A program made the position numbers and the translations under genes. The notes under the pieces were generated by a model that was not told the DNA's origin, did no database searches, and worked only from the letters and a program-made list of their open reading frames with translations. 64,000 nucleotides of DNA from Xestospongia muta (taxonomy: Eukaryota > Porifera > Demospongiae > Haplosclerida > Petrosiidae), in contig OY848921.1 of the NCBI GenBank assembly GCA_963693285.1, positions 6,709,229 through 6,773,228 on the forward strand, given 5' to 3'. Shown piece by piece: positions 73-64,000 of this stretch (position 1 is its first letter; every line of letters starts with the position of its first letter).

Positions 73-1501
73 GCCCACCTTTATCTCAACAAGAGAAAAT
101 AATTCAGTCAATGATGAAGCAAAGACTAATAGAAGGAGACTCATGGTATATACACTAATTGTTAAATACACTACTTTAGTCATTCTACTGTAGGTGTCTT
201 GTCAGTACCCTGTGGTTTGAAAAATGGAAAGCATATGTCAAGAGTGCTACTGGAACTGGAGTTGTTACTGATAGTCCTGGTCCAGTTACTAACTTCATGT
301 TGTTGGAACGTAAAAATCATCAACGCAGTCTTAAGGAGAATCTGAATAGAGGTACACATTACATACTGGTTCCTGAGATAGCCTGGGATCTGTTGATACA
401 GTGGTATGGATTAAGTGAGAAGTCCACCTACATTGCAAGGTTAGGTTTGTTTGTGTCTTGTGAAATATACTTACGATGTTTATATTACTAAGATTGACTA
501 CGTTGATATAATGTTATATAATCAATACTTGTATGAATGCTTAGTTATTTCAAGTGTTCACATGCTAACATATTAAATGACATTTTACTATAATTATTAA
601 ATGATCCTTATCATCTGCTATAGGAAAGTTGTAAAAATTCAAAGACATGCTATCACAGAATTTATAGTGGAGGTGTATCCATTACATATCCATGTAACAC
701 TAAGTTCTAGCAAAACATTAAGACCATATACAATTCAACGAAGTGATAATGTTGGTAAGTTATTTAACATATCTCTCCTACTAGTCTATAAGACTATATT
801 ATATGTAGTTTATGTGATGGAGAAACTCCGTACGAAGTACAATGTAGGAGATAGCATTGAGACCAGACTATGGTTATGTCATGAGAGTAATAAGACTATA
901 CTAAAACCCACAGACACTATGGGATGTAATCAATCACATTATTCAGTAGAACCTAATGATGTAAGTACATTGTTCAATAATTGATAATACACTTTTACAT
1001 TAAATATAGACACTGTTACTTGAGACTAAGATTGGTGCTTGGTCAATACAGGAGTCAACTAGTAATGGACAAATATTCAATAAACCAAAAGAAGGTATAT
1101 TAAAAAATATTAACTGAAATTAGTTAACAAGTAATTGGTGTGTGACCTCCCATTTATAAAAATTGTATAATCTAAACCTTTAATCACAATGCCTTATATA
1201 GTATGTCAATAGCTACAACGACATAAAGTGGACATAGCTGAAATAATAATATAGGATACTGAGAGATCTAATGTAAATCCTGAATATAATAGTTCAGTCA
1301 TATAATGGTATAAATATTAGAGAATGTTTTTTAATATTATGTGCTGTTTATTTCTTTTTTCCAGCTAAATTATCATGTGTTGTACCTTCTGATGGTCAAC
1401 ATCTATTACTAAAATCAAATCCCTCCTATATGTATAAACATTTATTACCAGTGATACCATCCTTTGAAGAATCTGCTGACTATGAGACAATGCCATCTTA
1501 A
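73..1501 (+). CDS. DUSP + ubiquitin-like protein related to USP4/11/15, 5' partial, no catalytic domain
   Basis: Exons read at 73-145, 194-439, 624-754, 809-960, 1010-1094 and 1365-1501 (TAA), all with AG/GT borders and matching phases; the gene begins left of the window. Exons 1-2 give a DUSP domain: GDSWCLVSTLWFEKWKAYV, then PGPVTNF and HYILVPEIAWDLLIQWYG, the pattern of USP4/11/15 N-termini. Exons 3-5 give the following ubiquitin-like fold (VEVYPLHIHVTL, MEKLRTKYNVGDSIETRLW, LLLETKIGAW). In USP family members a cysteine-protease domain (NLGNTCFMN-like Cys box) follows. Here the frame closes after a short tail ending DYETMPS, and the next gene lies antisense. The product would therefore be a substrate- or partner-binding module without deubiquitinase activity, or a truncated paralogue. 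Exon calls are firm; the functional status is uncertain. Confidence 0.8.
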
Positions 1502-1931: not shown

Positions 1932-3379
1932 TTAGGCTCTGTCTGATGTATCTCTAGATTGATAGACCACACCTCTTTCTCTTAACTCATCTAGCACATC
2001 TTCAGGAAGTTCTCCCGATACTGATATTGCATAACATCCCTTAGTAAATTTATCTAAAGATAAAGAAATTGATGACATTATAAATACTTAGTTATTAAAT
2101 CAATTACATTAGAAGAGGTAATCATATAGACAAATACTTAAATTTAAGATCAGCAAATGAACCATGTTGAGCCACACCCACAAAAGCAATATACAATTAT
2201 CAAGAAATGTCAAATGCATTTCTAAATTGTCTCAACAATAAAACAGACTATATCAAATATATATATAATATTATTATTTCCTAAGAAATAGTTTTGTAGA
2301 CTCTACATCTATGTAGAAGTAATTTTTAATTTTGAGTTTGCTATGAGCCTAAATGAGAGAATATTATCCAATCCCTACATAGGGTAGTGCTACCATCTAC
2401 CTAATGACATATACCACTGGTTACTTATGTAGTAAATACTAATAATACTTACCTATTCTCTGCCATTTAGCTACCCAGCTATCTTCATTACCCATCATAG
2501 CTATCATCCTAACAAGAGATACAATAACACAATAGAACTAACCCTCTATTTCTCTCCTTATCCTTCAAACACACATATACATACTACTAACAAACTATTT
2601 TAAAGAGATCATCCTAATGTCCTGTATTTATTTGTTTTCCTTTAGTGTTGTTATTTATATCATGTAACCATCCTTAAATTTTCATTAATTTCTTGTGATA
2701 AATGGTATGAAGAGATTAATATTTTCTGTAAAATATTTAAACTCTCCATAGATTTGTGGTGGCAAAGGACTTATAATGGCATTTTCATTGACAATGAGGG
2801 TTTTTACCAACAAAGTAGATAAGACACAATGTACACTGTTGTGAATGAATTTATTAGTGCAGTCTAAGGAATCTGAAACAAGATGGAAATGTGTATGAAA
2901 TTAATTTCAAAAATTATTCTGTGATTTTAAACATCTTATGATTTCTAAGCTCTGTGTACAGATATAAACAGTATTTGTTAGTGATTTTTGACTAACATTT
3001 CTCATTTAATATTGAAAGTGTACAAGATGTCAGCTTCAATTATTACATCAGACTCCTAGGTGCATGATGTCTCTGATATAACGTATCACATGTAGGTATT
3101 TATATGTTATATCTGATAGACTTACCCATCAAAATTTGAACTAGTACAATCATTGACTTTTCCTCTGTTTCCTTTGAGATGAAGATATCTCTCACAATTA
3201 TCACATCCAGTATAGAGAAACTGATCAAATGACTATATTAATGATAGATATTATTACCACTAACATTGTAGAGTAGACTTCTACTTTATGATACATCACT
3301 ACAAACTTACCTTTACCATAGAACATAGCTTACAAGCTCGTAGTCCTCGAAGATCCTTAGGAATAGATTCTAAAGACAT
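1932..3379 (-). CDS. SPT4: transcription elongation factor SPT4
   Basis: Four exons on the minus strand: 3379-3311, 3232-3126, 2508-2453 and 2053-1932 (stop 1934-1932). Phases match at all three introns, giving a 116-residue protein; human SUPT4H1 is 117. The N-terminus [19 protein letters not shown] carries the first CxxC of the zinc finger, and CDNCERYL in exon 2 carries the second. [25 protein letters not shown] and the C-terminal [20 protein letters not shown] follow the family closely. SPT4 pairs with the NGN domain of SPT5 to form DSIF, which controls RNA polymerase II pausing and processivity in the nucleus. Exon 1 is duplicated at 32062-32130. The copy boundary (about 3239) lies only a few bases from the exon-2 acceptor, so this copy is the intact one. 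Confidence 0.93.
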
Positions 3380-4241
3380 TGTGGAAATTTTTAACCCGTT
3401 GAGTTTGTACCCGCCTTGAACCACGCCTACAAGATTACAGACCCGATTGCGCTGTGAAACACAAAGAAGGGCGAGAACTTGCACCACTGTAAATTTAGTC
3501 AAAGAAAGGAGGTAAGCTGAACAGTACCTTATCTGATTATTAATATAACTTACACTATCTGAAACTTTAACTAAATGACTAAGTCTGTGCAATTTACAAG
3601 TCTGTACAATTTCTAATTGTCTGACTCTATGATGAGACTATGACACTGGTTATAGTCACCTGACTATGACAATTATTGACCTAGTTTTGGGTGTCTCTAA
3701 GCTTGGTAAAATTCCATCAGGTCAACGAAGTATTAAGTTAAGTAGAGAATGTATTTTATTTTTGCCCTAATTAATGTTTCAATAATTGTAAATAACATAC
3801 AATTTAGTAAAGTTATGTTGATTCATCAACTTCAATGATCATGACACAATAGATATCAGACAACCTGACACAGGATTAGAATATTGTAACAACACCTACA
3901 TGTTGTAGTCATAAAGTAATGAAACTATTCCACTATCCAGCAATAGAATAATGGTTGATTGTACAAGAAATTATATTTATCCCAATTTAGCATTTTCTAA
4001 CTGAAATACTTCTTAGCCGGCACTATATAGCCATTATTAACTTTCCAGTCTTTAATATTACATAATTTATAGTATTAAAATTAATCTTAAGAACCTTTTA
4101 TAATTATTATCTTGTTCATCATCAACAAATAAAATTTACCTTTTATATGTTGGATCATCAAAACAATCAAGTTTGGATATAAATATATTATTAATAATAT
4201 ATTATAGCTTAGTGCTACAACTGATTAAGCAATTTAACCAG

Positions 4242-6522: not shown

Positions 6523-6752
6523 ATTTCCTTTGTTTTATTCTATTATCATATGTGACTTATCCAAGTACATAACCTTGACTTATAGAATGATCAACATAAA
6601 TAATTACAAACATTATCAGTAAACATTATTATTTGTATTTACAAGATACACATCATCCTTTATTAGAGTTAGTATGTTCAGTATTCATTTTGTTTAAATG
6701 TTCTTTGTAATCCAGTATAGAATTATACTAACCATACATTAAATGTTGACAT

Positions 6753-6814: not shown

Positions 6815-6844
6815 ATGGCTGAAAGAAATGAAAGACCAAGTTTG
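6815..6844 (+). other. Roco A exon 1 (start exon, phase 0)
   Basis: ATG in good context (A at -3, G at +4) followed by ten codons, then the donor GTAAGT at 6845. A TAG lies in frame five codons upstream. The copy at 34521-34550 keeps length, start and donor while six substitutions change four of ten residues. Confidence 0.7.
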
Positions 6845-9800
6845 GTAAGTCATTCTATATATGTAACTAATGGAGAATATTGCTACATCAAATAAAGAAA
6901 AACAATTAAATGTATTCAATACTATAATCTAAAAATAGTAAAGATTGTTACTATTGACTAGTTAATTTATAATATTTTCAATGGTGACCGAGATTATTAT
7001 GACACCTATCATGGTTTAAAGCCACACCTTTGATATCTACTTGGAAAAAACCTAATATAAACTTTAAATATTCAAACACTTGATAGTTATTCAATAGTAT
7101 TTTTAATAAATATATATATAGCAAGCTCACTTGTTGTGATATGTCTTTCTTTTTTTTATGTTCCTATGATGACAAACCTATACTCTCATTGTCACAACTA
7201 TTTATAGCTGGTAAGTATGTACAATGTCAATTCAGGCTATCTTATTTGCATTTTATCTTAATTGAGTAATTGTTTATATCAATTAAAGTTATTAGGTTTT
7301 AAATACAATCCTTGTTACTATGTGTCTTTCTTTGTTTTTATGTTCCTATGATGACAAACCTATACTCTCATTGTCACAACGATTTATAGGCGGTAAGTAT
7401 GTACAATGTCAATTCATGTGATCTCATTTGCATTTTATCTTAATTGAGTAGTTGTTTATATCAATTAACCTTATTAGGTTTTAATTAGAATCCTTGTTAC
7501 TATGTGTTTTTCTTTCTTTTTTACGTTCTTATGATGACAAACCTACACTCTCATTGTCACAACTATTTATAGGTGGTAAGTATGTACAATGTCAATTCAT
7601 ATGATCTCATTTGCATTTTATCTTAATTGAGTAGTTATTTATATCAATTAACGTTATTAGGTTTTAATTAGAATCCTTGTTACTATGTGTTTTTCTTTGT
7701 TTTTTATGTTCCTATGATGACAAACTTATACTCTCATTGTCACAACTATTTATAGATGGTAAGTATGTACAATGTCAATTCATGTGATCTTATTTGCATT
7801 TTATCTTAATTGAGTAGTTGTTTATCTCAATTAACCTTATTAGGTTTTAATTAGAATCCTTGTAACTATGTGTTTTTCTTTCTTTTTTACATTCTTATGA
7901 TGACAAACCTACACTCTCATTGTCACAACTATTTATAGGTGGTAAGTATGTACAATGTCAATTCATATGATCTCATTTGCATTTTATCTTAATTGAGTAG
8001 TTATTTATATCAATTAACGTTATTAGGTTTTAATTACAATCCTTGTTACTATGTGTCTTTCTTTGTTTTTTATGTTCCTATGATGACAAACCTATACTCT
8101 CATTGTCACAACTATTTATAGCGGGTAAGTATGTACAATGTCAATTCATGTGATCTTATTTGCATTTTATCTTAATTGAGTAGTTGTTTATATCAATTAA
8201 CGTTATTAGGTTTTAATTACAATCCTTGTTACTATGTGTTTTTTTCTTTTTTTATGTTTTTATGATGACAAACCTACACTCTCATTGTCACAACTATTTA
8301 TAGTTGGTAAGTATGTACAATGTCAATTCATGTGATCTTATTTGCATTTTATCTTAATTATATAGTTGTTTATATTAATTATACTTAATAGGTTTTAATT
8401 ACAATCCTTGTTACTATGTGTTTTCTTTTCTTTTTTATGTTCTTATGATGACAAACCTACACTCTCATGGTCACAACTATTTATAGGTGGTAAGTATGTA
8501 CAATGTCAATTCATGTGATCTCATTTGCATTTTATCTTAATTGTGTAGTTGTTTATATTAATTAATGTTATTAGGTTTTAATTAGAATCCTTGTTACTAT
8601 GTGTTTTTTTTCTTTTTTTATGTTTTTATGATGACAAACCTACACTCTCATTGTCATAACTATTTATAGGGGGTAAGTATGTACAATGTCAATTCATGTG
8701 ATCTTATTTGCATTTTATCTTAATTATATAGTTGTTTATATTAATTATACTTAATAGATTTTAATTACAATCCTTGTTACTACGTGTCTTTCTTTGTTTT
8801 TTATGTTCCTATGATGACAAACCTATACTCTCATTGTCACAACTATTTATAGGCGGTAAGTATGTACAATGTCAATTCATGTGATCTCATTTGCATTTTA
8901 TCTTAATTGAGTAGTTGTTTATATCAATTAACATTATTAGGTTTTAATTACAATCCTTGTTACTATATGTTATTGTTTGTTTTTTATGTTCCTATGATGA
9001 CAAACCTATACTCTCATTGTCACAACTATTTATAGATGGTTAGTATGAACAATGTCAATTCATGTGATCTCATTTGCATTTTATCTTAATTGAGTAGTTG
9101 TTTATATCAATTAACGTTATTAGGTTTTAATTAGAATCCTTGTTACTATGTGTCTTTCTTTGTTTTTATGTTCCTATGATGACAAACCTATACTCTCATT
9201 GTCACAACTATTTATAGGAGGTAAGTATGTACAATGTCAATTCATGTGATCTCATTTGCATTTTATCTTAATTGAGTAGTTGTTTAAATCAATTAACCTT
9301 ATTAGGTTTTAATTAAAATCCTTGTTACTATGTGTTTTTCTTTCTTTTTTACGTTCTTATGATGACAAACCTACACTCTCTTTGTCACAACTATTTATAG
9401 GCAGTAAGTATGTACAATGTCAATTCATATGATCTCATTTGCATTTTATCTTAATTGAGTAGTTATTTATATCAATTAACGTTATTAGGTTTTAATTAGA
9501 ATCCTTGTTACTATGTGTTTTTCTTTCTTTTTTATGTTCCTATGATGACAAACTTATACTCTCATTGTCACAACTATTTATAGATGGTAAGTATGTACAA
9601 TGTCAATTCATGTGATCTTATTTGCATTTTATCTTAATTGAGTAGTTGTATATATTAAATAAAGTTATTAGGTTTTAATTACAATCCTTGTTACTATGTG
9701 TCTTTCTTTCTTTTTTATGTTTCTCTGATGACATACCTATACTCTTATTGTCACAACTATTTATAGGATGTAAGTATGTACAATGTCAATTCATGTGATC

Positions 9801-12800
9801 TTATTTGCATTTTATCTTAATTGAGTAGTTGTATATATAAATTAAAGTTATTAGGTTTAATTACAATCCTTGTTACTATGTGTCTTTCTTTCTTTGTATG
9901 TTCCTCTGATGACAAACCTATACTCTTATTGTCACCACTATTTATAGGAGGTAAGTATGTACAATGTTAATTCATGTGATCTCATTTGCATTTTATCTTA
10001 ATTGAGTAGTTGTTTATATCAATTAACGTTATTAGGTTTTAATTACAATCATTGTTACTATGTGTTTTTCTTTCTTTTTTATGTTCCTATGATGACAAAC
10101 TTATACTCTCATTGTCACAAATATTTATAGGCAGTAAGTATGTACAATGTCAATTCATGTGATCTTATTTGCATTTTATCTTAATTGAGTAGTTGTATAT
10201 ATTAATTAAAGTAATTAGGTTTTAATTACAATCCTTGTTACTATGTGTCTTTCTTTCTTTTTTATGTTTCTCTGATGACAAACCTATACTCTCATTGTCA
10301 CAACTATTTATAGATGGTAAGTATGTACAATGTCAATTCATGTGATCTTATTTGCATTTTATCTTAATTGAGTAGTTGTATATATTAATTAAAGTTATTA
10401 GGTTTTAATTACAATCCTTGTTACTATGTGTCTTTCTTTCTTTGTATGTTCCTCTGATGACAAACCTATACTCTTATTGTCACAACTATTTATAGGCGGT
10501 AAGTATGTACAATGTTAATTCATGTGATCTCATTTGCATTTTATCTTAATTGTGTAGTTGTTTATATTAATTAAAGTTATTAGGTTTTAATTACAATCCT
10601 TGTGACTATGTGTGTTTCTTTGTTTTTTATGTTCCTATGATGACAAACCTATACTCTCATTGTCACAACTATTTATAGCGGGTAAGTATGTACATTGTCA
10701 ATTCATGTGATCTTATTTGCATTTTATCTTAATTGAGTAGTTGTATATATTAATTAAAGTTATTAGGTTTTAATTACAATCCTTGTGACTATGTGTCTTT
10801 CTTTGTTTTTTATGTTCCTATGATGACAAACCTACACTCTCATGGTCACAACTATTTATAGGCGGTAAGTATGTACAATGTCAATTCATATGATCTCATT
10901 TGCATTTTATCTTAATTGTGTAGTTGTTTATATTAATTAAAGTTATTAGGTTTTAATTACAATCCTTGTTACTATGTGTCTTTCTTTCTTTTTTATGTTT
11001 CTCTGATGACAAACCTATACTCTTATTGTCACAACTATTTATAGGATGTAAGTATGTACAATGTCAATTCATGTGATCTTATTTGCATTTTATCTTAATT
11101 GAGTAGTTGTATATATTAATTAAAGTTATTAGGTTTTAATTACAATCCTTGTGACTATGTGTCTTTCTTTGTTTTTTATGTTCCTATGATGACAAACCTA
11201 CACTCTCATGGTCACAACTATTTATAGGCGGTAAGTATGTACAATGTCAATTCATATGATCTCATTTGCATTTTATCTTAATTGTGTAGTTGTTTATATT
11301 AATTAAAGTTATTAGGTTTTAATTACAATCCTTGTGACTATGTGTCTTTCTTTGTTTTTTATGTTCCTATGATGACAAACCTATACTCTCATTGTCACAA
11401 CTATTTATAGGCGGTAAGTATGTACAATGTCAATTCATATGATCTCATTTGCATTTTATCTTAATTGTGTAGTTGTTTATATTAATTAAAGTTATTAGGT
11501 TTTAATTACAATCCTTGTGACTATGTGTCTTTCTTTGTTTTTTATGTTCCTATGATGACAAACCTATACTCTCATTGTCACAACTATTTATAGCGGGTAA
11601 GTATGTACAATGTCAATTCATGTGATCTTATTTGCATTTTATCTTAATTGAGTAGTTGTTTATATCAATTAACGTTTTAGGTTTTAATTACAATCCTTGT
11701 TACTATGTGTTTTTTTCTTTTTTTATGTTTTTATGATGACAAACCTACACTCTCATTGTCACAACTATTTATAGCGGGTAAGTATGTACAATGTCAATTC
11801 ATGTGATCTTATTTGCATTTTATTTTAATTATATAGTTGTTTATATTAATTATACTTAATAGGTTTTAATTACAAGCCTTGTTCCTATGTTTTTTTTCTT
11901 TTTTATGTTCTTATGATGACAAACCTACACTCTCATGGTCACAACTATTTATAGTTGGTAAGTATGTACAATGTCAATTCATGTGATCTTACTTGCATTT
12001 TATCTTAATTGAATAGTTGTTTATATTAACTAAAGCTATTAGGTTTTAATTACAATCCTTGTTACTATGTTTTTTTGTTTGTTTTTATGTTCCTCTGATG
12101 ACAAACCTATACTCTCATTGTCACAACTATTTATAGGGGGTAAGTATGTACAATGTCAATTCATGTGATCTCATTTGTATTTTATTTTAATTGTGTAGTT
12201 GTTTGTATTAATTAAAGTTATTAGGTTTTAATTACAATCCTTGTTACTATGTGTCTTTCTTTGTTTTTTATGTTCCTATGATGACAAACCTATACTCTCA
12301 TTGTCACAACTATTTATAGCGGGTAAGTATGTACAATGTCAATTCATGTGATCTTATTTGCATTTTATCTTAATTGAGTAGTTGTTTATATCAATTAACG
12401 TTATTAGGTTTTAATTACAATCCTTGTTACTATGTGTTTTTTTCTTTTTTTATGTTTTTATGATGACAAACCTACACTCTCATTGTCACAACTATTTATA
12501 GTTGGTAAGTATGTACAATGTCAATTCATGTGATCTTATTTGCATTTTATCTTAATTATATAGTTGTTTATATTAATTATACTTAATAGGTTTTAATTAC
12601 AATCCTTGTTACTATGTGTTTTCTTTTCTTTTTTATGTTCTTATGATGACAAACCTACACTCTCATGGTCACAACTATTTATAGGTGGTAAGTATGTACA
12701 ATGTCAATTCATGTGATCTCATTTGCATTTTATCTTAATTGTGTAGTTATTTATATTAATTAATGTTATTAGGTTTTAATTAGAATCCTTGTTACTATGT

Positions 12801-15800
12801 GTTTTTTTTCTTTTTTTATGTTTTTATGATGACAAACCTACACTCTCATTGTCATAACTATTTATAGGGGGTAAGTATGTACAATGTCAATTCATGTGAT
12901 CTTATTTGCATTTTATCTTAATTATATAGTTGTTTATATTAATTATACTTAATAGATTTTAATTACAATCCTTGTTACTACGTGTCTTTCTTTGTTTTTT
13001 ATGTTCCTATGATGACAAACCTATACTCTCATTGTCACAACTATTTATAGGCGGTAAGTATGTACAATGTCAATTCATGTGATCTCATTTGCATTTTATC
13101 TTAATTGAGTAGTTGTTTATATCAATTAACATTATTAGGTTTTAATTACAATCCTTGTTACTATATGTTATTGTTTGTTTTTTATGTTCCTATGATGACA
13201 AACCTATACTCTCATTGTCACAACTATTTATAGCGGGTAAGTATGTACAATGTCAATTCATGTGATCTTATTTGCATTTTATCTTAATTATATAGTTGTT
13301 TATATTAATTATACTTAATAGGTTTTAATTACAATCCTTGTTACTATGTGTTTTCTTTTCTTTTTTATGTTCTTATGATGACAAACCTACACTCTCATGG
13401 TCACAACTATTTATAGGTGGTAAGTATGTACAATGTCAATTCATGTGATCTCATTTGCATTTTATCTTAATTGTGTAGTTGTTTATATTAATTAATGTTA
13501 TTAGGTTTTAATTAGAATCCTTGTTACTATGTGTTTTTTTTCTTTTTTTATGTTTTTATGATGACAAACCTACACTCTCATTGTCATAACTATTTATAGG
13601 GGGTAAGTATGTACAATGTCAATTCATGTGATCTTATTTGCATTTTATCTTAATTATATAGTTGTTTATATTAATTATACTTAATAGATTTTAATTACAA
13701 TCCTTGTTACTACGTGTCTTTCTTTGTTTTTTATGTTCCTATGATGACAAACCTACACTCTCATTGTCATAACTATTTATAGGGGGTAAGTATGTACAAT
13801 GTCAATTCATGTGATCTTATTTGCATTTTATCTTAATTATATAGTTGTTTATATTAATTATACTTAATAGATTTTAATTACAATCCTTGTTACTACGTGT
13901 CTTTCTTTGTTTTTTATGTTCCTATGATGACAAACCTATACTCTCATTGTCACAACTATTTATAGGGGGTAAGTATGTACAATGTCAATTCATGTGATCT
14001 TATTTACATTTTATCTTAATTGAGTAGTTGTTTATATCAATTAACGTTATTAGGTTTTAATTACAATCCTTGTTACTATGTGTTTTTTTCTTTTTTTATG
14101 TTTTTATGATGACAAACCTACACTCTCATTGTCACAACTATTTATAGTTGGTAAGTATGTACAATGTCAATTCATGTGATCTTATTTGCATTTTATCTTA
14201 ATTATATAGTTGTTTATATTAATTATACTTAATAGGTTTTAATTACAATCCTTGTTACTATGTGTTTTCTTTTCTTTTTTTATGTTCTTATGATGACAAA
14301 CCTACACTCTCATGGTCACAACTATTTATAGGTGGTAAGTATGTACAATGTCAATTCATGTGATCTCATTTGCATTTTATCTTAATTGTGTAGTTGTTTA
14401 TATTAATTAATGTTATTAGGTTTTAATTAGAATCCTTGTTACTATGTGTTTTTTTTCTTTTTTTATGTTTTTATGATGACAAACCTACACTCTCATTGTC
14501 ATAACTATTTATAGGGGGTAAGTATGTACAATGTCAATTCATGTGATCTTATTTGCATTTTATCTTAATTATATAGTTGTTTATATTAATTATACTTAAT
14601 AGATTTTAATTACAATCCTTGTTACTACGTGTCTTTCTTTGTTTTTTATGTTCCTATGATGACAAACCTATACTCTCATTGTCACAACTATTTATAGGCG
14701 GTAAGTATGTACAATGTCAATTCATGTGATCTCATTTGCATTTTATCTTAATTGAGTAGTTGTTTATATCAATTAACATTATTAGGTTTTAATTACAATC
14801 CTTGTTACTATATGTTATTGTTTGTTTTTTATGTTCCTATGATGACAAACCTATACTCTCATTGTCACAACTATTTATAGATGGTTAGTATGAACAATGT
14901 CAATTCATGTGATCTCATTTGCATTTTATCTTAATTGAGTAGTTGTTTATATCAATTAACGTTATTAGGTTTTAATTAGAATCCTTGTTACTATGTTTTT
15001 TTTCTTTTTTATGTTCTTATGATGACAAACCTACACTCTCATGGTCACAACTATTTATAGTTGGTAAGTATGTACAATGTCAATTCATATGATCTTACTT
15101 GCATTTTATCTTAATTGAGTAGTTGTCTATATCAATTAGCGTTATTAGGTTTTAATTACAATCCTTGTTACTATGTTTTTTTTCTTTTTTATTTTTTTAT
15201 GATGACAAACCTATACTCTCATGGTCACAACTATTTATAGTTGGTAAGTATGTACAATGTCAATTCATGTGATCTTACTTGCATTTTATCTTAATTGAAT
15301 AGTTGTTTATATTAACTAAAGCTATTAGGTTTTAATTACAATCCTTGTTACTATGTTTTTTTGTTTGTTTTTATGTTCCTCTGATGACAAACCTATACTC
15401 TCATTGTCACAACTATTTATAGGGGGTAAGTATGTACAATGTCAATTCATGTGATCTTATTTACATTTTATCTTAATTGTGTAGTTGTTTATATTCAATT
15501 AAAGTTATTAGGTTTTAATTACAATCCTTGTTACTATGTGTCTTTCTTTGTTTTTTTATGTTCTTATGATGATAAACATATACTCTCATTGTCACAACTA
15601 TTTATAGAGGGTAAGTATGTACAATGTCAATTCATGTGATCTCATTTGCATTATATCTTAATTGTGTAGCTGTTTATATTAATTATAGTTATTAGGTTTT
15701 AATTACAGTCTTTGTTACTATATGTCTTTGTTTGTTATGTTCTTATGACAACAAACCTATACTCTTATTGTCACAACTATTTATAGGAGGTGAGTATGTA

Positions 15801-17238
15801 CAATGTCAATAAACTAAGTTACTAGGAATATTGTTAATAGTCATTGCTCTTAGTCTAGGCAGGCATTACAGTACTTGCTTTGTATATATGTGTGTTTCTG
15901 TCTGTTAACAGACAGTGTACTCTGAAGTGCTTACCAAAGATATTATCTAAAGCTGCAAAATTAGGGAAGGAGATAAAAAAGTTTAGCACTATAAATTATT
16001 TCTAGTTAACTGGTTTTCAACAAGATGGAAGATTTGATCACTACAGTAATTTACTAATAAGATGTGGAAAGTTTCATAGAAATGCTTTATTTTGAAGTTA
16101 TTGAGTCAAAAAAACAGCCATTTGCAAACGCACAACTGTTATAACACACCTGTAAAATTAAACAGTTGGCAGTCCTATGGTTTTTATCACCATATACCAC
16201 ATCCATTAATTTCTATTTAGTAAGTTCTCAGGTAGTGGTAGTATGACCAACTAAAATCATTCAGTATAATTTAGCCACTACTACAGCAAATGTTCTGTAC
16301 TTTAGTGCTTTTTTCTTTGTCAATTATTGAACTAAGCTTTGTTTATGTCTTTTATATTTTTATTTAAAAACACCTTTCTGACCATTTGATGATAATATGT
16401 TCTTATCAGTTATTTACAAATTTACAGGATACTTAATTGATTTGTTGTTTATTTTTTATGTCAATGATTTACCTGCTGATATCAAATCGAACATATACAT
16501 GTATAGAGGGATGATGAAAGAGGTAAAGTATTTATGTATTACTTAATATAACATTATAGTGCTAGGAGATATAACAATATAACACAAACTAATTCTATAC
16601 TATTGTCAAATCACTTCTCAAGTCATTTTTGTAAAATGTCTGAAGAAACCATACCTTAACTGTTTTATATGATGTACAGACAAATTAAAGACACTTCATG
16701 AGGTTATTAAGAAGTGTCAAACTATATAGGTAATTTTTATTGCAGTTTAAATTTCTGTGATCATATCTCACAATGCTCAAAGAATAAATGACATGACAAA
16801 TCAACAATATACCATGGTGTTAAAAAGAGTTCAGCCACCCAAGTAGAAGTTGCATTATTTGAGTTTATTTGAATTAACTACAGCTACACATGTAGTGTTT
16901 CTGTGCTGTTACAGCTATTTTTGAAGAGAAAGCTTAACACAGGGAGTGGTATAGTTTTGGCAAACAGAACAAATGTACAAATCACATCCCACATACTTTC
17001 AATTATTGAGACCAGTTCAAAACTTTTAAACAGAACTGGTAGGGACATTATATGAAAGTATCAATTGTGATATCATTGCAGTATTTAGAATGACAGCAAT
17101 ATCATAAAAATATTTTTCTTCTGAAATACGGAATTGTTTTTTATTTTCAATATGGTTTATATAACATTGACTTGTGCTTTATATAATATATACATCCATG
17201 CATGCATGCATACATATATATGTACATATATGTATGTG

Positions 17239-17298
<60 letters not shown>

Positions 17299-20200
17299 TA
17301 CGTATATATACATATATATAAGTAGCAATAAAGTATTGTCAAGCCTTGTGATGAGGCAATTAATCATGAGTTACTATCCATAACATCATAAGAAACTATC
17401 CATCAATGTCATTCTTAGCAATGTATATCAAACCCCATATAACTGTATATATTCAATATGACTACATCATTTAACTGGCTACTGAATACTGAGCATTGAA
17501 CGAAGTTGTATGTGTTAATAAAACAATAACAACTATCATCCTGACTATAGGGTATACTATTGCTCCCAGTATAGTTATAATAAAGCAACTTATATTAATG
17601 AAATGATGTTGCTTCAAGTATACCTCTATGGAATTATCGTTGTTTACTCAATACTGAATTTTATTATATAGTTGAAGTATAAAATCATTATCAATAAGAT
17701 TGTTGTATCATCATTCTTGTATGTTGTATTGTGTAACTAGTCCTAAAAATATCTGTTAGTTTGGTCTCACACTATTCAGCCTTCAGTGGAAAATACCACA
17801 TTGATCTATTGAGTGTTCATAATAATTATTGTATGATAAAAATTAAATTACTTCACAATAATCACTGTGAATATTCCTAGTCAAGTTTCAACAGTTACAA
17901 ATTCTACCATTTTATTAACTATCCAGGTATATGCTTTGAAGCACAATTGATCATATCCATATTATAGTTGGTTAATACCATATTGATTGTAACAGCTGTC
18001 ATGACTTTAAATGTTAACTGAAGTGTAGTTACTATTGTAGTATTTCTCAGAAACACAATGGTTTAGTAAATGTATATTGAATTTTAATTTGTCACGGTAC
18101 ATATAGAACTATTCTCTAAATAGATATATTAAATTAGGATAATATTTTATGATATTAATAATCGTTGTTTAATTTTATCTGATAGATGCCTATAAGAGAG
18201 CTCTAGCAGAGGGAGAAATGGATGTAGCATATGGACGTGTTATGTTACTTGGTTCAGCTGGAGTAGGAAAAAGTAGCTTAAAGCGATCATTGATGAAGTT
18301 ACCATGGCAACCTCACACTACCAGCACCATTATATCTGATGTTACATGTGTTCGACCATTTGGACATGAGTGGTATTCTATGAGCCTGGAAGATACTGAT
18401 GACAAATGGAGAGAAGTAACCTTTGAAGACGAGATAGAAGAAATGGCACAACTACTTGCTATAGTATATAAAGATCGTTCCAGTCCCAGATCTGTACTCA
18501 ATACAGTGGCAGCTTCAGCACTCTACCCTATAACTGCTATGATGAGGGCTTCATCCTTATCTTCACAACTAGTTCAAGATATAGAGACCACCAAAGTTAA
18601 TGAAATTCTTTCAAAAGCTATAGCTCGTTCTGAGCATATATCCAGAGGTGATCTTAGCAATATTAAACCTCAGCCATTTTTGCACATCTGGGATTGTGGT
18701 GGTCAGCCTGTTTTTCTTGAAATCCTCCCTGCCTTCCTGACTCCTCGTACACTGTTCCTCCTCCTGTTTGATGCCTCTAAGGATATCAATGAAAGGTGGC
18801 AGTCTATACAGAATATTGAGGGGAGGCAAATTTTTGGTGAGGAAGTAAACATCAGCACACTTGATCTGATGCTCAACTGGATGGCTAACATTCATGGTCA
18901 CCTCATTTGTCGTGACAAAGAAGGTAGTCTTTGTGAGTACCCTCGTATGTACTGCATTGGTACTCACGGTGATGTCCTAGAGACTGATGAGAAGAAGAAA
19001 GCAGTTGTAGATGAGCTGGAGTCCAAGTATAAAGATAAAGCATTTATGGAACTTGTTGAAGAAACTTTGATTATCGACAACACCACTTCTGGTAAAGGAA
19101 AACATGAAGATCCAAATCTCATTAAGCTACGTAGAGCTATTTGTCAGTTCACATATGAAAAGCTCATTGTCAAGACTCCAGTTAGCTGGGTTCTCTTTCG
19201 AAAAATAATCCAAATGTTTAAAAAAAATGTAATCGATCTTAAAGAAGCTCATGCTATTGGAGTAGCTTGTAAAATACCTCATGATGATGTTCCAAAGGTC
19301 CTCCTGTTTTATCATGATCTAGGAGTAGTGCTGTTCTATCCCCACATTACTGGTTTAAGAAACAAAGTTATCATCAATCCTAAATGGTTTGTGGAAACAC
19401 TTGGGAAAGTGTTGACATTAGATGGACAAGCTGATGGACAAACAAGACTAATGTGGACATTACTACAAGAAAAAGGCATTCTAGTACAACCATTTTATGT
19501 GTCTCTTTGGAAAGAATGTAGAGCAGACCTTAGTCCAGAAGATATAATTGAACTTTTAATTCATTTTCGCCTTGCTGCTAAAGTTACTACTAAAGTATAT
19601 TATGATCGAACAGTCAAGCAGTATTTTTTGCCAGCCACACTTCCAACTTTCAAAGGAGATCCCAATGAAGCTCTACCAAGTTATCATCTTCAAGCTACTC
19701 CACTACATATCACTTTTAGCACAAAATTTGTACCTCCTGGTTTCGTCACACGTTTAATTACCTCTCTGGCTAGTAATCCATCTTGTGAGCTTATGTTTGA
19801 ATGTGGTATATATCGCAATCGTGTCACTTTTGTATATCACAAATCAGATGATCATATCACACTCACTGATCTCCACTATGCCATACAAGTTGATGTATTA
19901 CGATATGCTCCAGTTACCTTCAAGATTCCATCCTTTGATATAATATGTCAAGAACTATTGAGTGTTCTTAAAAGTTGTGGAGATCTCGTTGAACAAACTC
20001 TTACAGGTCATTGGGGAATGATAAATGAATCCACTCAATCTATCTCTATGGAGAGGGAATTTCGATATGTATGTAGATCAAAAGAATGTGATCAATCTGA
20101 GGTTCATTACTTCAATATATCAGTAGACAAGTCTTCCATTCACTGTGAAAAGAGTATGTATAGATCATATCGTAGACCAACTGCTGAGGAAAGAGTCTGG

Positions 20201-20850
20201 TTTGATGGATGGAACATACCAGAAGAGGTACAGTTCAGGAGAGTTCATTATAATGTCTCAATATATTCTTTATAGGCAGTGTCTCTTGAATCATCACCTC
20301 CTGTAACCACGGTGTCAAGTGCTACTGGTCAAATTTGTCAGCAAGAGTCTCTTGAAAGTGAAAGAGGTAAGCCAGATCATTGTGTATATGAATTGTTACG
20401 TAACTTGTGATAATTACATGTACATAATGTTTTGTGGTCTTTGTTATTTTGAACATGTTTATAGTCATCAAAACTGGTTGGATTATTCCTATTACATAGT
20501 GAATACATATTGTATTTATTGTAGATATTTCTAGTGTTCTATCAAAAGTTCCTACTGGTAAAGATGCCCTCTCATTGCTCATTCCTATTATGAATCAGTG
20601 GTATATCATTGGTGGTGCACTAGATATTAATCCTGGTAAGCTCGACAGTTTAGATCAAAGTCAGGATCCAGTCAAGACAAAGCTTTTCAAAGTCATCACA
20701 ACATGGCTGAATGAAAAAGGTAGGGCAGCTACTTGGGGAGAACTCCTTGAAGCAGTTGAAGGTGACATTGTGAAAAGTCGTCAAACTGGTGAGAATATTC
20801 GTGAATTTCTAAGAAAGCCAGATATCTACAGAAAATATTCTGGTCAATGA
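6815..20850 (+). CDS. Roc-COR GTPase with C-terminal death domain (Roco copy A), N-terminus spanning a microexon array
   Basis: Model: exon 1 6815-6844 ([10 protein letters not shown], phase 0), 0-48 three-base microexons at 7208-15789, a 16-nt exon at 16507-16522 (RDDER plus G), then 18186-20227, 20276-20366 and 20525-20850 (TGA). Product about 834 residues plus one per microexon used. The big exon holds the Roc GTPase. Numbered from the methionine at 18218, the P-loop GSAGVGKS is at 12-19, switch II WDCGGQ at 158-163, and the THGD guanine-specificity motif at 249-252. A COR-like region follows (about 320-520). The last exon is a death domain ([31 protein letters not shown]). There are no LRRs. 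Roco proteins are signalling GTPases that dimerise through COR; a death domain suggests apoptosis or innate-immune adaptor signalling (inference). The intron at 20228-20275 is only 48 nt. The C-terminal exons are secure; the N-terminal join rests on splice sites and phase. Confidence 0.82.
7120..15812 (+). repeat. array A: 48 tandem units of about 183 bp, each a 3-nt microexon between a 3' and a 5' splice site
   Basis: Each unit contains a T-rich tract, ATGATGACAAACCTA, CACAACTATTTATAG, three variable bases, GTAAGTATGTACAATG, ATTTGCATTTTATC, and an AT spacer. Triplet positions include 7208-7210, 7390-7392, 7573-7575, 7756-7758 and, last, 15787-15789. By-eye counts: GCG 8, GGG 8, GTG 6, CGG 6, TTG 6, ATG 5, GAG 3, GCA 2, GAT 2, CTG 1, AGG 1. 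Units 11 and 43 carry the donor GTTAGT and unit 48 GTGAGT; all others keep GTAAGT. Blocks within the array are re-duplicated: R-L-V-G-A-M at units 6-11 recurs in part at 29-33 and 39-43. The array fills the intron between Roco exon 1 and the 16-nt exon. Confidence 0.93.
15813..16506 (+). other. intron between array A and 16-nt exon; possible alternative terminal exon
   Basis: After the last unit, an acceptor-like TGTTAACAGACAG at 15903-15915 opens a phase-0 frame at 15916-16005 ([17 protein letters not shown]..., TAG). Copy B has a related frame at 60967-61038. No donor follows, so it could only be a terminal exon. Many replacement differences make coding doubtful. The rest is AT-rich with no other gene. 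Confidence 0.3.
16440..16506 (+). pseudogene. short reverse-transcriptase-like remnant
   Basis: The plus strand reads [17 protein letters not shown] just before the 16-nt exon. The VNDLPADI core resembles the conserved YVNDLP segment of non-LTR retrotransposon reverse transcriptases. Only about 20 residues are recognisable. The duplicate (61545-61598) keeps it with changes. Confidence 0.4.
16507..16522 (+). other. Roco A 16-nt linker exon
   Basis: Acceptor ATGTATAG, exon AGGGATGATGAAAGAG, donor GTAAAG. Read in phase 0 it gives R-D-D-E-R plus a G. That G joins the AT opening the exon at 18186 to make Asp, continuing [10 protein letters not shown] into the Roc domain. The 3n+1 length is exactly what links a phase-0 array to a phase-1 exon. 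The copy at 61599-61614 (REHKR plus G) has the same length and borders. Confidence 0.72.
16523..18185 (+). other. Roco A intron with (TA)n microsatellite
   Basis: AT-rich intron. About 17196-17320 holds CATG/TA-rich simple repeat; the short open frames across it are artefacts. An 8-bp stem (ACCAGTTC/GAACTGGT) near 17011-17041 is kept in copy B. Nothing else recognised. Confidence 0.6.
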
Positions 20851-21232: not shown

Positions 21233-24037
21233 ATGAAGTTAAACTACTTTGCTGTTCTGGTCCTTACAATATTATTGATAGAGACTAGTAATGCATTCAG
21301 TAGTGGAGCTCCTTCAGATGCATGTAGTACTATGCAACCAAGTCATGGAGCTAATGTACCTAGTGATTGTGGACCTAATTGTCCATTTAATGTTGTAGTA
21401 ACTAATATTGGTGGACAACCAGTTCAAGGCAATGTTGATTATCGATGTGGACAAGTACACACAAGTAAGTAAAATGACACTATTATGATTTGTACCAGTA
21501 CATTAGAGAAGTGATTGACTAATATAGTTACTAATATTTTTAATATTATATTAATTCACTATTGTAGTTTGTTGATATAATGAAAGATATCTACTAACAT
21601 TATTAAGAGAAATTGAATCAAATTATATTAATATCTTGACATCTTTCTCTATTAGTTATAGTATCTACTGATGATCCATCAGTTCAATTTCGTGGCTCCA
21701 TGTTAGAAATAAGAGAGACCACTAATACTTTTGATAACCAGTCACCATTTGCTGGTCAGTTCGTAAACTTTGGAGTATCACAAGCTGGTACATGTCCTGG
21801 TGTTGGACCTGTAAGTAGTTTATAGAATATATGTTTTGTAATAGTATGTACACATTAATATAAACTGTTGTATTACATTATATCTTTCTAAGTAGTTTAT
21901 TATAAAGATACAATGATTATATTAATACTCTATATTTTGGGGCCACATTACTTGTTGAAGATTTGTCAGGTCAAAACAACAATTTTAGCCTCAATAATGA
22001 ACTTGGTTGATCTCTACAGCTATATAATGTCTATCTTAAATGTATGATATATTTACTGTAACAAATATACTTTGTTTAATATTCATAACAATATAACATA
22101 TAGTTATGTCAGACCATCATTATAGTCTAGTTATAATATAACACTGTGTTATAGGGTGCTTATGGTACACACACTGAGAACAGTGATAAGACTTCTCTCA
22201 CCTTTCAATGGTTAGCACCTTCTAATGGTAATACTCCTTCATCAGTGACTATATGGTAAGGTCTTCATGATACATCATTGATGTTCTCTAATCTTGTTAG
22301 GTTCACTGTGTGTAGAATGTTTAGTTTGTTTCATGTTACACTGAGAGGTCCTGATCTTGTAAGTAAATATCTTGTCATTTTATGTCATATGTATGTAATA
22401 TGTATGTAGATACCAGACCCAGTGTTTTGTGATACTGCCACTACACCAACTACTCCACCCACTACCCCACCCACTACCTCACCAACTACTCCACCCACTA
22501 CCCCACCCACTACCCCACCAACTACTCCACCAACTACTCCACCCACTACCCCACCAACTACACCAATTACTCCACCAACTACTCCACCAACTACTCCACC
22601 CACTACCCCACCAACTACTCCACCCACCACCCCACCAACTACTCCACCCACTACCCCGCCAACTACCCCACCCACTACTCCACCAACTACTCCACCAACT
22701 ACTCCACCCACTACCCCGCCATCTACTCCACCCACTACTCCACCAACTACCCCACCAACTACCCTGCCAACTATTCCACCCACTACCCCACCAATTACTC
22801 CACCCACTACTCCACCCACTACCCCGCCATCTACTCCACCCACTACTCCACCAACTACCCCACCCACTACTCCACCCACTACATCTACACAGCCTACAAT
22901 ACCATCAAGTAAAATACTTTAGATATATTATTTTTTAAATTTATATTTATTGTTAACAGAACGACCCAAGAAATTCAAAATTTCTCTACTCAGAGATTCT
23001 CCAATAATTAGAGGTAACAGTTTACTTGCTTACATCAAGACATCACATAGGAGTATTAAATTGTCCTGTAAAATAACTGGTAGAAAATGGAGGGATTGTA
23101 AGTTATATATATTACATGGAACATATAATATCATTGAACATGTACAGGTAGTTCTGGAGTTGTTAGATTTTATGATCTTCCTTCACGAAGTACACCTTAC
23201 TATTTGAATATACGTGGTTATTCTTATTATGGATATGATGAATTTCACAGGATTTTTTGGATTGGTAAGTCATATTATGTGTTCTATTAAGTAGATGAGG
23301 TATCTGACAGATGAATAGCTCCGTTATGAGTCTTATGACATTACAGTTGAGACTGACCCTATAATTATATAGTTCTTATAGCTAATTACTACATGTGATA
23401 TTATGATAATATGATATTTCATAGGTAAACCACTGTTCTGTGCTGTCGGCTTTATCAATAACGGTCTTACAATTACTAATTCTAATGTTGTTGCCGAGTA
23501 TAAAGCTGTTGGGAAAGCTGTAGAGTCTCTATTATGTCAACTAGATAATGGAGACTATTATCCCTGTAAATCACTCTTGTTGTACAGTAATATCACATAC
23601 ATACATACTTTGAAATTTTTACAAATACCATGATCTACTAGAATTTGATATGTATCCTCACATACTGATAATCTATACTGTGTACTGGAATCTATGGTGT
23701 CCAATTTAGAAGCCCTAGAGCCTTTGCTAATTACATTTAATGATGATAAGTGAGGCTGTATTAGGTTTTTAGGTTTGTGGTTTCTAAAACCAAAAAACTA
23801 AATGTATTAACATATAACTTTATGTACATATAACCACTAATGTATATTATATATATATATATATAATTACTGTAATGTGTAATGTTGCCTTGTTCATTCT
23901 ATTTCTCTCTCATGTATTAAGGTACTAGTCCTGTTACTATTGAGAATTTAATTTTTGGTAAACACACATTTATCATAAAACCACAAGGAATAAACTGTAC
24001 CAGGAAAAGAGCTGTAGCCATTTGTTTCTATATCTGA
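21233..24037 (+). CDS. secreted reeler-domain protein with Thr/Pro mucin-like repeat
   Basis: Nine exons with matching phases: 21233-21464, 21656-21810, 22155-22255, 22301-22358, 22410-22908, 22960-23097, 23148-23264, 23425-23586, 23922-24037 (TGA); 525 residues. Residues 1-22 are a signal peptide (hydrophobic FAVLVLTILLIE). A reeler domain follows: GAPSDACSTMQPSHG, VQFRGSMLEIR, AGQFVNFG, FQWLAPS, as in reelin, FRRS1 and insect defence proteins. Exon 5 encodes about 150 residues of near-perfect TTPP repeats, a likely O-glycosylated extracellular stalk. The remaining 190 or so residues are cysteine-containing and unassigned; CKITGRKWRDCSSGVVRFYDLP and a later CQLDNGDYYPCKS...LIFGKHTF segment look like two copies of one small beta-rich domain. 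No transmembrane segment is seen. The role is probably extracellular matrix or defence; only the reeler assignment is firm. Confidence 0.82.
22435..22890 (+). repeat. 12-bp coding minisatellite (TTPP)n
   Basis: Tandem ACTACTCCACC-type units inside exon 5 of the reeler gene. The long Gly/Val frame on the opposite strand is an antisense shadow. Copy number is likely polymorphic. Confidence 0.9.

Positions 24038-34520: not shown

Positions 34521-64000
<29,480 letters not shown>

What the first reader, a model, noticed from the sequence alone, without database searches (positions are those of the whole stretch)
6815..16522. A ladder of 48 one-codon microexons between the start exon and the GTPase exon of a Roco gene
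Each unit places three bases between a full 3' splice site (CTATTTATAG) and a full 5' splice site (GTAAGTATGT). The exon before the array ends in phase 0 and the exon after it begins in phase 0, so 0 to 48 extra residues can be inserted without frame loss. If used, this would generate a variable peptide directly before the Roc domain, by combinatorial choice or serial inclusion. I know of no described system of tandem single-codon exons. Splice-site presence and phase are seen directly; usage is inference.
Basis: partly seen in the sequence, partly recalled or inferred. Interest (0 to 1): 0.95.

Follow-up and report, generated by a model that had tools for sequence, protein, structure and literature searches.

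The report
Peptides spelled by one-codon exon arrays
In what looks like a sponge genome, a family of neighbouring signalling genes carries long rows of exons each only three bases (one codon) long, which seem to be spliced together in order to build a fast-changing protein tip for each gene; DNA evidence is strong that they are translated, but no RNA has yet been seen.

Summary
Confirmed and much enlarged. The 48 units are there (7198-15799), each placing exactly three bases between a 3' and a 5' splice site, in phase between a 10-codon start exon and a 16-nt exon leading into a Roc-COR exon. The window holds a second gene with 142 units, and the contig 18 places with the 16-nt exon; the exact motif occurs 526 times, all + strand. 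The triplets look like real, translated exons. Length is 3 in 403 of 403 anchored units, while 371 of 648 unit spacings differ from 183 bp. No stop occurs in 526 exact motifs or 687 relaxed units, where 12-28 are expected. The third base obeys the 5' splice site (G 528, T 125, A 34, C 0), with T mostly where it changes the amino acid. Triplet positions 1 and 2 have higher entropy than any of 177 flanking columns. In one paralogue pair order is kept with only synonymous triplet changes. Best reading: serial inclusion, codon by codon, giving each Roco paralogue a private N-terminal peptide (16-142 residues in ladders read in full). Combinatorial choice is possible but unsupported. No transcript was available: usage is inferred.

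The parts
6815..6844 (+). Gene 1 exon 1: ATG plus 9 codons ([10 protein letters not shown]), ends in phase 0 at GTAAGT
   Evidence: Read; the exon pattern with GTAAG after it occurs at 8 places in the genome; the 5 found in the stretches scanned all end in GTAAGTCATTC.
7198..15799 (+). Gene 1 codon ladder: 48 three-base exons in ~183-bp units; read in order LAVMVRLVGAMEAMDEAMARADAARRLGRLVGARVGGGLVGAMLLGRE
16507..16522 (+). Gene 1 16-nt exon (RDDER + first base of next codon)
   Evidence: variants of this exon at 18 places of the contig in all.
18186..20227 (+). Gene 1 Roc-COR exon
   Evidence: Pfam Roc 3.8e-10, COR-A 9.6e-13, Ras 4.6e-5; PDB sequence matches to a leucine-rich-repeat protein (4wnr) and LRRK2.
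20276..20366 (+). Gene 1 linker exon
   Evidence: In frame between GT-AG introns.
20525..20850 (+). Gene 1 last exon, Death-like domain, ends in TGA
   Evidence: Pfam Death E 0.0054, below its gathering score; frame; stop read.
34521..34550 (+). Gene 2 exon 1 ([10 protein letters not shown])
34897..60689 (+). Gene 2 codon ladder: 142 three-base exons, with ten copies of an 11-unit (~2013-bp) higher-order repeat; begins DPEWRPEVPPVPVEP, ends FEPKKKRVRR
60740..60860 (+). Decayed unit at the end of ladder 2: exon and both splice sites missing
61599..61614 (+). Gene 2 16-nt exon (REHKR)
63359..64000 (+). Gene 2 Roc exon, cut by the window end

Best explanation
Each ladder is a protein-coding region in which every codon is its own exon. 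The spliceosome removes the ~180-nt introns one after another, most likely from the 5' end (each joined codon is at once followed by the next strong 5' splice site), so that all or nearly all triplets are joined in order between the first exon and the 16-nt exon. This gives each Roc-COR(-Death) paralogue its own N-terminal peptide (16 to 142 residues in the ladders read in full, a decayed copy aside) with its own composition. Because a unit is one codon plus one intron, gain, loss or swapping of units always keeps the frame, so the peptide can be rewritten fast while the GTPase part stays conserved. Shown from DNA: the architecture, phase, stop avoidance, splice-constrained third base, excess variability of the triplet, order kept in some paralogues. 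Inferred: splicing itself, serial inclusion, direction of splicing, and the use of the peptide (probably a gene-specific interaction or localisation tag on a cell-signalling protein).
For: (1) Gap exactly 3 nt in 403 of 403 units that matched anchors with a gap of 0-30 allowed (411 units lie in those stretches; 8 did not match the anchors), while 371 of 648 unit spacings differ from 183 bp. (2) No TAA, TAG or TGA in 526 exact motifs of the genome (all 88 NNH and 60 TNG places listed) nor in 687 relaxed units. After collapsing near-identical units to 492-217, shuffled positions give 28 to 12 stops on average and never 0 in 5000. CAG, AAG and GAG are present, so TAG is not simply avoided as a false splice acceptor. 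(3) Third base G 528, T 125, A 34, C 0, against T 271, A 216, C 99, G 94 in the gene 1 Roc exon. For proline CCG is 85 of 106 in the ladders and 0 of 31 in that exon: the base before GTAAGT is under splice-site selection. (4) A and T in third place: fourfold boxes 20:3, split boxes 8:81 (collapsed; p 6e-13; at the strictest collapse 14:3 and 7:42, p 7e-7), so T appears mostly where it is needed for F, D, N, Y, H, I. (5) Entropy of triplet positions 1 and 2 is 1.95 and 1.96 bits, above all 177 flank columns (maximum 1.26). AG is kept in 685 and 686, GT in 687 of 687 (the search pattern favours kept sites). (6) Two paralogous ladders spell WDYTEGLSVTDPESP over 15 aligned units, with 82 flank changes and 3 triplet changes, all synonymous. 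The nearest relative in another ladder is also a first unit for 7 of 13 first units, and also a last unit for 7 of 13 last units. (7) Roc exon dN/dS 0.16-0.52 between four intact copies and the part of gene 2 in the window.
Against: No transcript or protein was seen: the search with the spliced N-terminus returned nothing at E 10. Three-base exons are very short for the spliceosome (recalled). The third-base test is not significant when limited to dinucleotides with one G or C (p 0.06, 0.21, 0.30). In unit pairs less than 1% apart, triplet positions 1 and 2 (0.023, 0.020) do not exceed the fastest flank column (0.0245), only the mean (0.0016); in wider pairs position 3 does not exceed the fastest column. 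The synonymous-only stretch rests on 3 changes, and only 3 of 78 ladder pairs could be aligned at my threshold. Peptides are low in complexity, as passive repeat growth would also give. About five units have lost exon or splice site (60831 in the window; 6290293, 6323677, 6387093, 6338785 on the contig, judged by eye).
Confidence: 0.68

Rival explanations
1. Combinatorial or mutually exclusive choice: only one or a few of the triplets enter any mRNA, so each gene makes many isoforms that differ by a few residues before the Roc domain (Dscam-like).
For: Tandem near-identical cassettes with strong sites, any subset keeps frame; 19 of 20 amino acids occur over all ladders.
Against: Cassettes are highly redundant: 55 of 142 in ladder 2 are Glu, and single ladders use only 5-14 amino acids. 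A stop in one of 142 optional cassettes should be tolerated, yet none is seen. Order is kept in the alignable paralogues, and many end units correspond. Pairing between units (docking signals) was not examined; the hairpin within a unit shows no covariation.
Confidence: 0.15
2. Passive in-frame satellite: units multiply by unequal exchange, are spliced in and translated, but the peptide has no function; only stops and frame errors are purged.
For: Higher-order repeats, 16 to 142 units per gene, low complexity. In pairs of units under 1% apart, triplet positions 1 and 2 do not outrun the fastest flank column.
Against: Neutral triplets should change like neutral intron sites, but in pairs 1-3% apart positions 1 and 2 differ at 0.42 and 0.48, against a flank mean of 0.02 and maximum of 0.22; in pairs 3-5% apart at 0.62 and 0.71 against 0.04 and 0.30. 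A 15-codon stretch is kept with synonymous changes only. The last codon of four related end units is GAG at 5-9% flank divergence (two of the four are 0.7% apart); a second group of three reads GAG, GAG, GAT.
Confidence: 0.12
3. Not exons: an intronic satellite or ratchet (recursive splicing) sites whose triplets never stay in mRNA.
For: Closely spaced acceptor and donor resemble ratchet points (abstract and passages of PMC8605326 seen); no RNA evidence to the contrary.
Against: Stop avoidance and amino-acid-dependent third bases have no reason without translation.
Confidence: 0.04

Closest known systems
Schistosome micro-exon genes (MEGs)
   Same: Many very small symmetrical exons that can be included without frame loss and vary a protein by a few residues (passages of PMC4350168 seen).
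   Different: There the small exons make up most of the coding region and are not described, in the passages seen, as a tandem array of a one-codon repeat unit; here the ladder exons are exactly one codon, the introns are near-identical copies, and the rest of the gene has ordinary exons.
Three-base microexons (Drosophila homothorax and troponin T; mouse Ncam)
   Same: Single-codon exons are spliced in animals (start of abstract of PMC7392893 in the listing; passages of PMC8042270).
   Different: Reported as single exons; here 16-142 in a row, hypervariable.
Recursive splicing / ratchet points (Drosophila Ubx)
   Same: Acceptor next to donor, stepwise removal of a long intron (abstract and passages of PMC8605326).
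   Different: There the cryptic RS-exon is said to be always skipped; here triplets bear coding signatures.
Dscam-type tandem exon clusters
   Same: Arrays of duplicated cassettes creating variable protein parts (recalled; abstract starts in the listing).
   Different: Dscam cassettes are full domain pieces chosen one at a time (recalled); here one codon each, redundant, with order kept in alignable paralogues.
NAGNAG splicing
   Same: Adds or removes one codon at a junction (start of abstract of PMC3250501 in the listing).
   Different: Two acceptors at one exon, not separate exons.
COR/Death-domain proteins of Amphimedon queenslandica
   Same: The only named relatives among the 120 listed for the Roc-COR exon (5 rows), 45-52% identical.
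   Different: The four such records read (P0072, P0088, P0101, P0112) start at or close to the Roc domain; none shows a ladder peptide.

Membership tests
Roco (Roc-COR) proteins | Roc GTPase domain | tested here: met
   Pfam Roc 40.5 bits over cut-off 27; LRRK2 matches in PDB, E 6.5e-4 at best.
Roco (Roc-COR) proteins | COR domain after Roc | tested here: met
   Pfam COR-A 48.7 bits over cut-off 35.3, residues 331-481.
Roco with Death domain | Death domain | tested here: inconclusive
   Pfam Death 17.3 bits, below cut-off 22.6.
Microexon | Exon of at most 30 nt between splice sites | tested here: met
   Exactly 3 nt in 403 of 403 anchored units; definition from the abstract start of PMC8042270.
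Microexon | Included in mRNA | not testable with these tools
   No RNA reads held; protein search empty.
Schistosome-type micro-exon gene | Most of the coding region in very small symmetrical exons | tested here: not met
   Gene 1: 48 of 882 codons in ladder exons.
Ratchet point (recursive splicing) | Acceptor directly followed by donor | tested here: not met
   Three bases lie between them in 403 of 403 anchored units.
Ratchet point (recursive splicing) | Cryptic exon absent from mRNA | not testable with these tools
   Needs RNA; coding signature speaks against absence.
Dscam-like mutually exclusive array | One cassette per mRNA | not testable with these tools
   Needs cDNA; indirect evidence against.

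The most novel reading that the evidence does not exclude
A codon-by-codon diversity generator: an exon-focused rewriting process (short-tract conversion between units, perhaps helped by a hairpin that would put the triplet at its tip) together with serial or partly combinatorial splicing makes paralogue-, allele- or even cell-specific recognition peptides on Roc-COR-Death signalling proteins of a sponge. It would be a self/non-self or pathogen recognition system unlike antibody, VLR, Dscam or NLR diversity.
Probability: 0.15. Interest if true: 0.98.

Novelty: categorically new. Interest (0 to 1): 0.93.

Why it matters
If the ladders are spliced as they read, about 26 kb of DNA encode a 142-residue peptide one codon per exon, at the lower size limit of an in-frame exon. 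It would be a natural test bed for how the spliceosome handles exons too short for exon definition, and for serial splicing fidelity. It also shows a way to evolve peptides in which gain, loss or duplication of a unit keeps the frame. Ordinary gene finding and RNA alignment could easily miss it (the abstract start of PMC8042270 notes the mapping difficulty below 8 nt), so similar systems may lie unseen elsewhere.

Tried and rejected
RNA hairpin: 3' and 5' sites of a unit are complementary, with the triplet in the loop (14 units, no pair with both sides changed). Over 505 distinct units the paired fraction is 0.940 against 0.9375 +- 0.0007 (maximum 0.941 of 300) when partners are shuffled among units; slid partners give 0.22-0.59, as a consensus-derived structure would. 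The fold is no stronger than base-shuffled sequence (z -0.9 and -0.5). So I do not claim selection for the structure.

Transcript evidence through protein databases: search with the spliced gene 1 product, residues 1-76, found 1870 word-sharing candidates and none at E 10 or better. Of the 120 listed hits of the first search (628 in all) I read 20 sequences; by eye, none shows exon 1, a ladder peptide or the 16-nt exon before the Roc domain.

Start codon as microexon: four loci have a lone ATG triplet 1.7-4.1 kb before the next unit, with a conserved block and GTAAGT upstream. In one of them (6357254) the acceptor reads TATTG, so I leave this open.

Papers: the rows listed in searches (listings are capped) show no tandem array of single-codon exons; the library lacks most subscription papers and all bioRxiv preprints.

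Full report
What was checked. The 48 units exist at 7198-15799, spaced about 183 bp. Each has CTATTTATAG, three bases and GTAAGTATGT, 43 of 48 exactly; the pattern with up to 3 mismatches occurs 190 times in the window against 0.04 expected in shuffles. 48 belong to the reported ladder and 142 to a second ladder at 34897-60689, between a second start exon (34521-34550) and a second 16-nt exon and Roc exon. Gene 1 joined by GT-AG rules reads as one frame of 882 residues: exon 1, 48 codons, 16-nt exon, Roc-COR exon, linker, Death-like exon. Roc and COR-A are above Pfam's cut-offs; Death is below.

Extent. The window lies on contig C5 of a 158-Mb genome in 28 contigs. The exact motif occurs 526 times, all on the + strand, none on the other strand or in the reversed-pattern control. 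The places listed there, and all 88 NNH and 60 TNG motifs, lie on C5 between 6.238 and 6.908 Mb; the rest were counted but not listed. Variants of the 16-nt exon occur at 18 places of the same stretch (16, two more), the MAERN-type exon 1 at 8. I read 16 clusters of units, 13 of them with 10 or more units, 687 units in all under a relaxed pattern. Two of the 13 (6507727, 6391383) reach the end of the stretch I fetched or nearly so and may be longer. Further ladders at 6575-6580, 6836-6838, 6881-6885 and 6902-6908 kb were seen only as matches.

Are the triplets exons? The gap is 3 in 403 of 403 units that matched anchors with 0-30 allowed, out of 411 units in those stretches, although indels are common in the introns: 371 of 648 spacings are not 183. 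GT is kept in 687 of 687 and AG in 685 and 686 (the pattern itself favours intact sites). With an anchor that ignores the splice sites, 6 of 196 places in the window and 23 of 220 in the neighbouring 200 kb lack the motif; by eye most are unrelated sequence, two are units with an extra T in the acceptor, and about five are decayed units that have lost the exon or a splice site rather than holding a frame-breaking exon. The third base is G 528, T 125, A 34, C 0, the reverse of the Roc exon's T 271, A 216, C 99, G 94, as expected for the base before a 5' splice site.

Are they translated? No stop among 526 exact or 687 relaxed units. After collapsing near-identical units with equal triplets at four thresholds (492, 379, 309, 217 left), column shuffles give 28, 19, 16 and 12 stops on average and never none in 5000. 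Third-base T is used mostly where it changes the residue: collapsed counts of A and T are 20 and 3 in fourfold boxes, 8 and 81 in split boxes; at the strictest collapse 14 and 3, 7 and 42. Against this: limited to dinucleotides with one G or C, T in fourfold versus split boxes is 1 of 43 versus 28 of 222 (p 0.06), and p is 0.21 and 0.30 after further collapsing, so base composition may explain part of it. 19 of 20 amino acids occur, no Cys.

Are they special? Triplet positions 1 and 2 have 1.95 and 1.96 bits, position 3 0.95; the most variable of 177 flank columns has 1.26 and the median 0.31. In 1270 unit pairs 1-3% apart the triplet sites differ at 0.42, 0.48 and 0.20, the flanks at 0.02 on average and 0.22 at most. 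In 4554 pairs 3-5% apart: 0.62, 0.71, 0.29 against 0.04 and 0.30. In 856 pairs under 1% apart: 0.023, 0.020, 0.037 against 0.0016 and 0.0245, so there positions 1 and 2 exceed the mean but not the fastest column. Of 618 pairs with identical 158 flank columns, 27 have different triplets, 11 of them by two or three bases. Short-tract conversion between units plus selection on the codon would explain this; a mutational hotspot is not excluded.

Serial or alternative? Read in order, the ladders give peptides of distinct composition for each gene: Q/L-rich, P/W/E-rich, R/E-rich, W/L/Q-rich, A/V/L/G/M-rich, E/P/F-rich. Of 78 ladder pairs, three passed my filter for an alignable run of units (aligned on flanks only). 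6327431 and 6391383: 15 units, same peptide, 82 flank and 3 triplet changes, all synonymous. 6744125 and 6507727: 40 units, 28 flank changes (0.4%), 6 triplets changed, 4 of them nonsynonymous. 6716426 and 6420243: 16 units, 2.7% flank, 11 triplets changed, 9 nonsynonymous. A fourth comparison, two parts of the ladder at 6454840 that I split by eye: 45 units, 0.3% flank, 2 changed, both nonsynonymous. The nearest unit in another ladder is a first unit for 7 of 13 first units and a last unit for 7 of 13 last units (the ladder ends at 6514851 and 6400844 may not be the true ends). First units of six genes correspond yet code L, L, I, D, D, E; one group of four last units is all GAG, a second group of three is GAG, GAG, GAT; the other six do not group. 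Zero stops in 687 units would be hard to keep if each were used in a small share of mRNAs. I therefore favour inclusion of all or nearly all units in order, as the plain reading of strong sites predicts.

Host gene. The Roc exon evolves under constraint (dN/dS 0.16-0.52 among four intact copies and the part of gene 2). The copy at 6276600, with a shortened frame and only four units before it (KPRN), looks decayed, dN/dS 0.29-0.57. Roc exons of the intact copies are 91-94% identical in protein, while most ladder pairs share no alignable run of units at my threshold (75 of 78), so the variable part is the ladder.

Known systems. Single 3-nt exons, micro-exon genes, ratchet points and tandem exon clusters each share one feature. 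I found no description of a tandem array of one-codon exons in the rows listed by nine searches of an open-access library without preprints. I call it categorically new as a coding architecture, though its ingredients are known.

Limits. No RNA, no second individual, no second species. Usage, direction of splicing and function of the peptide are inference.

Noticed in passing
window 3302-3637 (-): An ORF holds [23 protein letters not shown], matching the N-terminus of transcription elongation factor SPT4 (PDB sequence search E 2.7e-6; the whole ORF has no Pfam match). A similar minus-strand block (read by eye) lies just before the ladders at 6288051 and 6357254, so the Roco copies may share a divergent promoter with it.
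   Followed up: partly
window 180-488 (+): DUSP domain, Pfam E 4.3e-17.
   Followed up: no
window 21233-22922 (+): A gene whose first exon looks like a signal peptide (by eye) and which seems to run into a 37-copy 12-bp repeat coding TPPTTPPT, mucin-like.
   Followed up: no
G000:C5 6288051, 6323862, 6357254, 6387278: Lone ATG triplet exons 1.7-4.1 kb before the next unit, ATG in all four at 11-14% flank divergence in the comparisons listed (6323862 and 6387278 look nearly identical to each other); possibly start codons that are themselves one-codon exons. One has lost its acceptor.
   Followed up: partly
L017, G000:C5 6272005-6276600: Copy with four units and a shortened Roc exon frame, apparently decaying; a protein of the public set (P0021) looks the same where I compared the ends by eye.
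   Followed up: partly
window 34897-60689: Ladder 2 contains ten copies of an 11-unit (~2013-bp) higher-order repeat coding FEDFEEEFEPP or FEPVEEEFEPP, a sign of recent block duplication.
   Followed up: partly
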